Of a stretch of 43,133 nucleotides of DNA, positions 16,745-32,414 are shown piece after piece. Below the pieces are notes generated by a model. It made no database searches, was not told the origin of the DNA, and was given only the letters and a program-made list of their open reading frames with translations. A program made the position numbers and the translations under genes. Positions within the stretch are counted from its first letter, which is position 1. Every line of letters starts with the position of its first letter. The DNA comes from Halorubrum sp. Hd13 (lineage in GTDB: Archaea; Halobacteriota; Halobacteria; Halobacteriales; Haloferacaceae), in NCBI RefSeq assembly GCF_002252755.1, contig NZ_NHOY01000004.1, positions 1-43,133 on the forward strand. The letters run 5' to 3'.

Positions 16745-16764
16745 CCCACGACTGAAGTCGTGGG
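16745..16764 (+). mobile_element. Solo IS200/IS605-type hairpin (CCCACGAC type)
   Basis: A perfect 8-bp stem CCCACGAC-TGAA-GTCGTGGG begins right after the stop codon of the zinc-ribbon gene. The same stem with loop TTTC recurs at 41096-41115. Such hairpins mark subterminal ends of haloarchaeal TnpA/TnpB elements. It might now act as a terminator. Confidence 0.55.
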
Positions 16765-30681: not shown

Positions 30682-31045
30682 GTATGGACGGTGGAAGTCC
30701 AGTCCGTAATAAGTTGAGTCACCGTTACGGAACGTGAAACACGGATTCTACTACTTCGCCGATCTGTGTCGACCCTGTCACTGACCCAGAAACATTGGAC
30801 CCGGGTATATGCCACTTCAATACACTAGGGCAAACATTCGACTTGAGATAGAATCGTTCGGTAAGCAGTACTCGGGGGGCCTTTGGGGGGTTCGAGGGCT
30901 CTGTTGACTCGATGGAAACGCTGCTACTCCATGAGAACGTGAAACAAGATATGGGGCGCAAGAGACCGACGGATTTCACGTGCCACAGAGCACGTTCTGT
31001 TGACTGGTCCGTGTGCGAAAGAAGTCGAGTCATGGGCGTTACAGC

Positions 31046-31074
31046 CCGGATGCCGCGCCCCGCGGCATCCGGGA
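31046..31074 (+). ncRNA. Possible bridge-RNA region hairpin upstream of the IS110 transposase
   Basis: A perfect 13-bp stem (CCCGGATGCCGCG and complement, loop CCC) lies 55 bp before the transposase start. In IS110-group elements this stretch encodes the bridge RNA that pairs with donor and target DNA. The rest of the RNA, and its loops, were not identified, so the assignment is tentative. Confidence 0.3.
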
Positions 31075-31129
31075 AAGCCCGAATAGGTGAATCTCTGCTT
31101 CACGCACTGGCGTCCCGGGTGAACGAACC

Positions 31130-32128
31130 ATGTACCTCGGAATAGACGTCCACAAACGGTACGCACAGGTGGCAGTGATGGATGAGGCTGGGAAGATCGT
31201 CGAAGAGGTTCGCGTCGAAAACGCGAACCTCGACGACCTCGCCCAGCGGTACGCCGGCGCACAAGCCGTGCTTGAGGCGACCTCCAACTACTACCACATC
31301 CACGATACGCTGTCGGAGCACTTGGATGTGACTGTCGCTCATCCCAAAAAGATCAACCAGATCGCAGACACCGACAAGAAAACCGACCGCGTTGACGCCA
31401 AAGAACTCGCGCGGATGCTCCGGTTAAATTCGGTGCCTGAAAGCTACGTTCCGACCGAGGAGGTCAGGGAAGCCCGCGCACGAGTGCGCGGGCGACAGAC
31501 GTTGGTCGAAAACCGTACCAAGTACGCCAACAAGATTCATGGGCTTCTCTCCGATCACGGCATCACTGAGGACGTGAAACCGCTAACCGTAGAGGGACGA
31601 GAGTCCCTGCGGGGACTCTCGATCCCGACGCCGTTCGATACGTTGCTTGAGTCGTACCTCGACCTGATCGAGTCGCTCACCGATGAGATTCAGAAGCTCG
31701 ATGAGACGATCGAAGAGCGCGCTGGGTCTCTGAAGGAGACCCAGCTGCTCATGACGATTCCCGGTGTGAGTTACTACACTGCGCTGACGATCTACGCGGA
31801 GTTAGGTGGGATCGACCGGTTTGACGGTGACAAGGAGGTCGTCAGTTACGTGGGATTGAACCCGGTGATCCGCGAGTCAGGTGACTCGCGGATCGAAGGG
31901 AGCATCTCAAAACGTGGATCAGGGAGTGTGCGATGGTTGCTCGTTCAAGCAGCAAACACCGCAGTTCATACCAGTAACGACGAGTATCTGAGTCGGTTTT
32001 ACGACCGGTTAGCAAGCCGAAAGAACTCACAGAAAGCGATTGTGGCAGCAGCTCGGAAGATGCTGGTATCGATCTACCACATGCTTGATCGGGGAGAAGC
32101 GTACGATCCACCCGGTGTGACCGCATAG
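31130..32128 (+). CDS. IS110-family transposase (DEDD)
   Basis: This is a 332-residue recombinase of normal size. The N-terminal RuvC-like domain carries the DEDD set: Asp6 (YLGIDVHKRY), Glu49 (AVLEATSNYY), and Asp86 and Asp89 (KKTDRVDAKELARM). A helical middle part (VRGRQTLVENRTKYANKIHG) leads to the C-terminal Transposase_20 domain with MTIPGVSYYTALTIYAELG, FDGDKEVVSYVGLNPV and SKRGSGSVRWLLVQAA, where the conserved catalytic Ser is expected. It appears intact. The gene contains five perfect 10-12-bp stem-loops, far more than chance predicts (see findings). The start is ATG 31130. Confidence 0.94.
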   Translation: MYLGIDVHKRYAQVAVMDEAGKIVEEVRVENANLDDLAQRYAGAQAVLEATSNYYHIHDTLSEHLDVTVAHPKKINQIADTDKKTDRVDAKELARMLRLNSVPESYVPTEEVREARARVRGRQTLVENRTKYANKIHGLLSDHGITEDVKPLTVEGRESLRGLSIPTPFDTLLESYLDLIESLTDEIQKLDETIEERAGSLKETQLLMTIPGVSYYTALTIYAELGGIDRFDGDKEVVSYVGLNPVIRESGDSRIEGSISKRGSGSVRWLLVQAANTAVHTSNDEYLSRFYDRLASRKNSQKAIVAAARKMLVSIYHMLDRGEAYDPPGVTA

Positions 32129-32137
32129 ACGAAGGAC

Positions 32138-32166
32138 CTGAGGGCCGCCCGTTCGGCGGCCCTCAG
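32138..32166 (+). terminator. GC-rich stem-loop after the IS110 transposase
   Basis: CTGAGGGCCGCC-CGTTC-GGCGGCCCTCAG is a perfect 12-bp stem with a 5-nt loop, starting 10 bp after the stop codon. It may stop transcription or be part of the element end. No T-run follows. Confidence 0.5.
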
Positions 32167-32414
32167 TGGCCAGCCGAGGCCCTCCATGAGCGTCAGCTAT
32201 CGCCAGACAGCGACCGCACCGCAGACACGTTCTGGCCGCCTACCGGCTGTGAAAACAGCAGATCCCTAGACGGCGTAATCATTTTGTCGCTAGGCGTGGT
32301 TTGCCCGGGTAGCAGCGTTTCCATAGGTGAAATCCACAATCGGTGATATGCTCTTAGAGACGTGCAAAGTACAGAGCGCGAATCTGCCGCACGCTAATTC
32401 ATACGAATACTACA

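What the first reader, a model, noticed from the sequence alone, without database searches (positions are those of the whole stretch)
31046..32166. Seven perfect stem-loops, five of them inside the IS110 transposase gene
Perfect stems lie at 31046-31074 (13 bp, loop 3), 31205-31231 (11 bp, loop 5), 31472-31493 (10, loop 2), 31598-31621 (10, loop 4), 31721-31745 (10, loop 5), 31867-31894 (12, loop 4) and 32138-32166 (12, loop 5). A rough estimate (about 1000 positions, four loop sizes, 4 to the power -10) gives well under 0.1 such stems by chance, and GC bias would raise this only modestly. They encode ordinary peptides, so third positions seem to be tuned for pairing. IS110 elements are known for a non-coding bridge RNA, not for a folded coding mRNA. 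Possible roles are translation control, protection from read-through, or RNA that interacts with the recombinase.
Basis: partly seen in the sequence, partly recalled or inferred. Interest (0 to 1): 0.78.

Follow-up and report, generated by a model that had tools for sequence, protein, structure and literature searches.

The report
Hairpin arrays in haloarchaeal transposase genes
Jumping genes of salt-loving archaea, from at least seven unrelated families, carry rows of perfect hairpins inside their transposase genes that evolution keeps paired even at the cost of changing the protein; the hairpins most likely hold back transposase production, but that function has not been shown.

Summary
The seven stems are the only perfect stems of 10 bp or more in the 43 kb window, and all lie in one 1.4 kb bridge-RNA (IS110-type) element. 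Synonymous shuffles of the transposase gene expect 0.036 such stems; five are there.

The stems are selected. They recur at the same positions in haloarchaeal homologues down to about 50% protein identity. They show about ten times more single-branch compensatory changes than slid controls, including changes that replace two amino acids to keep one pair.

The feature is not specific to IS110. Haloarchaeal ISH3, IS4/ISH8, IS66 and IS5 transposase genes carry similar arrays, with fewer examples in IS630 and IS1595. They are absent from TnpB genes, host genes, and transposases of the same protein families in methanogens and bacteria.

Best mechanism, about 45%: hairpins in the mRNA slow transposase translation, in organisms whose mostly leaderless mRNAs offer no ribosome-binding site to mask. 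Published Halobacterium data fit this (PMC10134880). Two observations argue against it: sense-strand G-U pairs are not tolerated better than A-C mismatches, and one non-coding mobile element also has internal hairpins. DNA-level function and self-templated mutation remain open. I found no earlier report in the held library.

The parts
30902..32330 (+). IS110-type insertion sequence, about 1.43 kb (ends approximate, from where similarity between copies in different sites stops)
   Evidence: pairwise comparison of copies, ends at about -228 and +1200 relative to ATG; left and right end alignments
30912..30927 (+). left subterminal inverted repeat ATGGAAACGCTGCTAC
   Evidence: sequence; complements 32309-32324; conserved in relatives
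30970..30979 (+). candidate right target guide of the bridge RNA (CGGATTTCAC), complementary to the right flank GTGAAATCC at 32327-32335
   Evidence: sequence; noted in this and a few relatives only, not tested statistically
30994..31004 (+). left target guide of the bridge RNA (GTTCTGTTGAC), matching the left flank of the insertion (30898-30908)
   Evidence: 36 distinct flank/guide pairs: 156 of 216 positions match, shuffled mean 100, 0 of 2000 shuffles
31045..31073 (+). hairpin in the left non-coding end, 13 bp, loop 3
   Evidence: same place in relatives; isolated RNA dG -27.4 kcal/mol
31130..32128 (+). IS110 transposase gene, 332 aa (DEDD_Tnp_IS110 + Transposase_20)
   Evidence: Pfam PF01548 8.1e-20, PF02371 7.8e-23
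31205..31231 (+). CDS hairpin H1, 11 bp, loop 5 (gene nt 76-102)
   Evidence: covariation, including V/N to L/K and V/N to G/T double replacements; dG -18.2
31472..31493 (+). CDS hairpin H2, 10 bp, loop 2 (gene nt 343-364)
   Evidence: dG -18.2
31598..31621 (+). CDS hairpin H3, 10 bp, loop 4 (gene nt 469-492)
   Evidence: most covariation, also kept in the about 50%-identity clade; dG -18.0
31721..31745 (+). CDS hairpin H4, 10 bp, loop 5 (gene nt 592-616)
   Evidence: dG -19.5
31867..31894 (+). CDS hairpin H5, 12 bp, loop 4 (or 13 bp, loop 2) (gene nt 738-765)
   Evidence: dG -22.4
32138..32166 (+). hairpin in the right non-coding end, 12 bp, loop 5, starting shortly after the stop codon
   Evidence: stem sequence varies between relatives with pairing kept; dG -26.5
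32309..32324 (+). right subterminal inverted repeat GTAGCAGCGTTTCCAT
   Evidence: sequence, conserved in relatives

Best explanation
The window holds an IS110-type element whose transposase gene carries five selected perfect hairpins, plus one in each non-coding end. It is one case of a feature shared by unrelated IS families of haloarchaea. SHOWN by computation: the hairpins exceed chance by about 100-fold, are conserved in position, are maintained by compensatory substitution, recur in ISH3, IS4/ISH8 and IS66 transposase genes and in two IS5-type genes, and are missing from TnpB, host genes, and same-family transposases of methanogens and bacteria. INFERRED: they act in the RNA as a distributed brake on transposase synthesis. 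Each stem (about -18 to -27 kcal/mol) slows or stalls ribosomes on the transposase mRNA. Most haloarchaeal mRNAs are leaderless, so the usual bacterial way of limiting transposase, a hairpin over the ribosome-binding site, is not available, and the brake sits in the reading frame. An RNA chaperone such as SmAP1 could melt the hairpins and release translation.
For: Excess over synonymous shuffles. Positional conservation. Tree-based compensatory changes: doubles are 22/27/40% of changes in IS110/ISH3/ISH8 stems against 1-2% in slid controls, p 1e-9 to 3e-11; independent count 11 pairs with two-sided changes against 2.9 shuffled and 1-2 slid. Stem fourfold-site divergence 0.017/0.023/0.061 against 0.20/0.39/0.52 outside. 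Folding z -7.5, -12.0 and -9.6 for three hairpin-bearing genes against -0.8 for a hairpin-free haloarchaeal relative and -1.6 for a methanogen one. Per-kb density IS110 4.4, ISH3 4.7, ISH8 3.5, IS66 3.9, expected 0.03-0.14; TnpB 0.07; host genes 0.16. Same DDE family: 14 of 14 haloarchaeal genes have stems, 1 of 15 other archaeal genes does. PMC10134880, in Halobacterium NRC-1: IS mRNAs abundant but only 4 of 33 mobilome proteins detected, three of them TnpB; ribosome pile-up at the 5' end of an ISH3-family mRNA; smap1 deletion lowers IS4 and ISH3 transposition. Majority of transcripts leaderless in Haloferax: PMC3986360 abstract.
Against: An RNA stem should tolerate sense G-U pairs, yet in stems WC-to-G.T changes (17) are fewer than WC-to-A.C (29), the reverse of slid controls (716 to 465; p 0.002). 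The skew comes mainly from IS110 (6 to 20); ISH3 and ISH8 show no preference. Hairpins also sit in both non-coding ends, and a non-coding IS605-type element (L343/L344) carries three internal perfect hairpins. ISH7A, an IS6 gene and a third annotated transposase in NRC-1 have none, and three haloarchaeal IS110 copies lack them. No expression or probing data were tested here. The published protein detection could reflect other controls (low codon adaptation, asRNA).
Confidence: 0.45

Rival explanations
1. DNA-level function. The inverted repeats matter as DNA: hairpins in single strands, or cruciforms, during replication, repair, recombination or transposition of double-stranded IS DNA. For example they could hinder recombination between IS copies or be handled by structure-specific enzymes.
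For: Strict Watson-Crick pairing with no sense wobble preference; stems in coding and non-coding parts alike; a non-coding mobile element also has them; narrow loop sizes, mostly 4-7, and few stems over 14 bp.
Against: No known haloarchaeal process demands it. Host genes and TnpB genes in the same lineage lack them. The array concentrates in transposase genes of families whose proteins are published as hard to detect.
Confidence: 0.22
2. Self-templated mutation. Template switching at existing hairpins copies one arm onto the other, so perfect hairpins maintain themselves without a function.
For: Perfect stems, no wobble preference, and both-sided changes on single branches, including replacement changes, are what arm-to-arm copying would leave.
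Against: It should act on any gene, but host and TnpB genes show chance levels. Several unrelated families in one lineage have arrays while same-family elements in other archaea do not. Broken or partial copies carry somewhat more unpaired changes per pair than intact ones (0.038 against 0.025), as expected if constraint is relaxed.
Confidence: 0.13
3. Antisense or sense-antisense control. The selected molecule is an antisense RNA over the transposase gene, or loop-loop contacts between the two strands' matching hairpins.
For: In IS110, A.C mismatches (G-U in the antisense strand) are tolerated about three times more than G.T (20 to 6, against 154 to 197 in slid controls, p 0.0017); asRNAs to haloarchaeal IS genes are published.
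Against: The skew is absent in ISH3 (9 G.T, 6 A.C) and not significant in ISH8; loops are not frozen; no antisense transcript was tested.
Confidence: 0.1
4. Chance or codon bias in a GC-rich gene.
For: Haloarchaeal genes do have occasional 10-bp stems.
Against: Synonymous shuffles, background density, conservation and covariation all exclude it.
Confidence: 0.01

Closest known systems
5'-UTR structures and sRNAs limiting bacterial transposase translation (IS10, IS200, ISPpu9)
   Same: RNA secondary structure of a transposase mRNA as a candidate brake on transposition; ISPpu9 (PMC8450116, found) is an element of the IS110 family (own knowledge)
   Different: Those act at the ribosome-binding site or 5' UTR. 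Here 2-8 perfect hairpins lie inside the reading frame, in several unrelated IS families of one host lineage, kept by covariation.
IS110/IS1111 bridge RNA (PMC11208160)
   Same: The window element has the two IS110 domains, subterminal inverted repeats and a left-end target guide that follows the insertion flank
   Different: The coding hairpins are outside the bridge RNA and also occur in IS families that have no bridge RNA.
Genome-scale ordered RNA structure of some RNA viruses (from own knowledge)
   Same: Structure spread over coding sequence and conserved beyond the protein
   Different: Here discrete, perfect, short-loop hairpins in transposon genes, not diffuse pairing over a viral genome.
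PATEs and IS605-type palindromic ends of haloarchaea (PMC3119063)
   Same: Haloarchaeal mobile elements with palindromes
   Different: Those palindromes are near-terminal recognition sites, not multiple internal coding hairpins; TnpB genes of that family lack the arrays.

Membership tests
IS110/IS1111 bridge-RNA element | DEDD_Tnp_IS110 and Transposase_20 domains | tested here: met
   PF01548 8.1e-20 and PF02371 7.8e-23
IS110/IS1111 bridge-RNA element | target guide in a non-coding end that follows the insertion site | tested here: met
   left guide matches flank in 36 distinct copies, 0 of 2000 shuffles
IS110/IS1111 bridge-RNA element | subterminal inverted repeats of 7-17 bp (IS1111 group) | tested here: met
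   16-bp ATGGAAACGCTGCTAC/GTAGCAGCGTTTCCAT; but the target guide lies in the left end as in the IS110 group, so the subgroup is mixed
IS110/IS1111 bridge-RNA element | circular intermediate and RNA-guided recombination | not testable with these tools
   needs experiment
5'-UTR or RBS-masking transposase brake | structure covers the start codon or ribosome-binding site | tested here: not met
   coding hairpins begin at gene nt 76, 343, 469, 592 and 738
5'-UTR or RBS-masking transposase brake | structure lowers transposase translation | not testable with these tools
   published low protein for such families only
Intrinsic transcription terminator | GC stem followed at once by a T run | tested here: not met
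   no T run follows any of the seven stems
Programmed frameshift stimulator | two overlapping ORFs joined at a slippery site before one hairpin | tested here: not met
   single intact 332-aa ORF with five spread hairpins
Haloarchaeal IS hairpin array (as described here) | 3 or more perfect stems of 9 bp or more in the transposase gene, with covariation | tested here: met
   covariation tested only for IS110, ISH3 and ISH8

The most novel reading that the evidence does not exclude
Haloarchaeal transposons of many unrelated families have converged on arrays of perfect Watson-Crick hairpins throughout their genes in answer to one host-specific condition (a defence, a DNA-processing pathway or a translation peculiarity) that is not yet known. 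The arrays would be a general signature of active mobile DNA in this lineage, not ordinary transposase regulation.
Probability: 0.35. Interest if true: 0.92.

Novelty: new variant of a known kind. Interest (0 to 1): 0.8.

Why it matters
A structural feature this strong, shared by unrelated transposon families and confined to one host lineage, points to a common selective force on mobile DNA in haloarchaea. If it is a translation brake, it explains why haloarchaeal transposase mRNAs are abundant while the proteins are hardly seen, and gives the RNA chaperone effect on transposition a physical target. If it is not, it points to an unknown DNA-level process. Either way it makes testable, base-by-base predictions in genetically tractable model species, and hairpin density offers a simple way to flag haloarchaeal transposons.

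Tried and rejected
Chance or GC bias: rejected by synonymous shuffles and genome background. Known RNA families: only a sub-threshold Rfam hit. IS110-specific role: rejected after similar arrays turned up in other IS families. Sense-RNA proof from G-U tolerance: tested, came out against. Loop composition and loop motifs: no clear strand signal or stable tetraloop. Dead-copy decay test to separate selection from mutation: only weakly informative, because nearest intact relatives are not parents. First estimate of stem fourfold divergence was circular, since both sequences had to keep the stem; it was replaced by a one-sided definition. First DNA alignment A1 mixed strands and was discarded for A2. 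Host-lineage explanation for the three hairpin-free IS110 copies: not pursued, because ISH3 and ISH8 copies from genome G027, in the same host family (f12) as two of them, do carry hairpins (L368, L380). Salinibacter plasmid as a high-salt bacterial control: its only annotated transposase is a short ORF, so uninformative. Filée 2007 IS review not held.

Full report
OBSERVATION. The seven stems are real. In the whole 43,133-base window the only perfect stems of 10 bp or more with loops of 2-8 are these seven, all inside one element. Shuffling synonymous codons of the transposase gene (1000 times) gives a mean of 0.036 such stems and never more than one; five are present. In 381 kb of the same genome there are 25, or 0.066 per kb. 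The folding energy of the gene is 7.5 SD below 60 synonymous shuffles, and all five hairpins appear in the minimum-energy structure.

WHAT THE ELEMENT IS. ORF 31130-32128 encodes a 332-aa IS110 transposase (PF01548 and PF02371), single copy in its genome. Comparison of copies in different sites puts the element at about 30902-32330, with 16-bp subterminal inverted repeats. The left non-coding end carries a segment (30994-31004) that tracks the left flank of the insertion: in 36 distinct copies 156 of 216 positions match against 100 in shuffles, 0 of 2000. A second left-end segment (30970-30979) is complementary to the right flank; this was noted by eye and not tested statistically. So it is a bridge-RNA element of the known kind, and the coding hairpins are something else.

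SELECTION FOR THE HAIRPINS. Homologues from across haloarchaea have hairpins at the same positions (gene nt -84, 76, 343, 469, 592, 738, 1009) down to about 50% protein identity, with clade-specific additions (174/175, 268, 36) and losses. The aligned stems show many compensatory changes, some of which replace amino acids on both sides: in L067 one G-C to C-G swap turns V27/N33 into L/K, and in L098 a T-A to G-C swap turns them into G/T. On a tree of 89 coding sequences, 24 changes in the eight hairpins examined are single-branch Watson-Crick to Watson-Crick doubles against 62 single changes; slid controls have 2-7 doubles among about 180-275 changes each. An independent count on 25 sequences gives 11 pairs with two-sided changes against 2.9 in shuffles and 1-2 in slid versions, 96.5% of cells paired. 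Fourfold-degenerate sites in stems diverge 0.017, 0.023 and 0.061 where sites outside diverge 0.20, 0.39 and 0.52; loops diverge 0.20-0.38.

NOT AN IS110 FEATURE. A scan of 1.18 Mb of haloarchaeal DNA, 800 kb of it from regions chosen around IS elements, found many clusters of 3-8 stems. Most of the larger non-IS110 clusters proved to be transposase genes of ISH3, IS66, IS4/ISH8, IS630 and IS1595 families. On Halobacterium pNRC100, ISH3B has 8 stems, ISH27-2 5, ISH8A 4, ISH8 2, and the IS5-type ISH28 and ISH11 2 and 3, while eleven host genes have 0-1 each. Density per kb of stems of 9 bp or more: IS110 4.4, ISH3 4.7, ISH8 3.5, IS66 3.9 (four genes only), against 0.03-0.14 expected; haloarchaeal TnpB 0.07; host genes 0.16 with 0.16 expected. 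ISH3 and ISH8 show the same compensatory excess (27% and 40% doubles against 1-2%, p 3e-11 and 1e-9). For IS66, IS5, IS630 and IS1595 only presence was seen; covariation was not tested, and the IS630 and IS1595 cases rest on few copies. IS110 elements of methanogens and bacteria (37 genes) show no excess. Of PF01609 transposases in the same phylum, 14 of 14 haloarchaeal genes have stems and 1 of 15 others does. Those others have lower GC on average, but their own shuffles expect almost none either way.

SHAPE OF THE HAIRPINS. Loops are mostly 4-7 nt with a sharp drop at 8. Stems are mostly 10-14 bp, rarely longer. Median spacing is 149 nt.

MECHANISM. The published Halobacterium atlas (PMC10134880) reports abundant IS mRNAs but only 4 of 33 mobilome proteins detected, three of them TnpB, whose haloarchaeal relatives lack arrays here. 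It reports a ribosome pile-up at the 5' end of an ISH3-family mRNA, and less IS4 and ISH3 transposition without SmAP1, which the authors note may melt hairpins. Most Haloferax transcripts are leaderless (PMC3986360), so a hairpin over a ribosome-binding site is not an option. Together this favours a distributed translation brake. Two results count against it. First, changes to sense G.T pairs are not favoured over A.C (17 to 29, where slid controls give 716 to 465; p 0.002); the skew is strong in IS110 and absent in ISH3. Second, similar hairpins lie in the element's non-coding ends and inside one non-coding IS605-type element. I therefore put the brake at about 45% and keep DNA-level function, self-templated mutation and antisense control open.

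LITERATURE. Searches of the held library for hairpins or palindromes in haloarchaeal transposase genes found no description of this feature. The library lacks most subscription journals, so earlier remarks in the older IS literature cannot be excluded.

Noticed in passing
window 30970-30979 and 30994-31004 against flanks 32327-32335 and 30898-30908: Target guides of a bridge RNA in the left end of a haloarchaeal IS110 element that also has IS1111-type inverted repeats; the left guide follows the insertion flank in 36 copies.
   Followed up: partly
window 32167-32308: The right non-coding end is about 200 nt, structured and conserved across relatives, although the bridge RNA target guides lie in the left end; its role is unclear.
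   Followed up: no
L343:18261-18744 and L344:12425-12908: A 484-bp element without a transposase, with IS605-type end palindromes and three internal perfect 12-13 bp hairpins; it argues against a purely translational role.
   Followed up: partly
L099, L110, L114: Three haloarchaeal IS110 transposase genes, from genomes of families f12 and f13, have no hairpins at all, two of them nested within hairpin-bearing clades: natural controls.
   Followed up: partly
window 16745-16764: CCCACGACTGAAGTCGTGGG, identical to the right-end palindrome of the L343/L344 element: probably the end of an IS605-type element in the window.
   Followed up: no
L345:1905-3719 (ISH7A), L437:32849-33370 (IS6) and L437:31079-32506: NRC-1 transposase genes without any stem of 9 bp or more: families or genes outside the pattern.
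   Followed up: no
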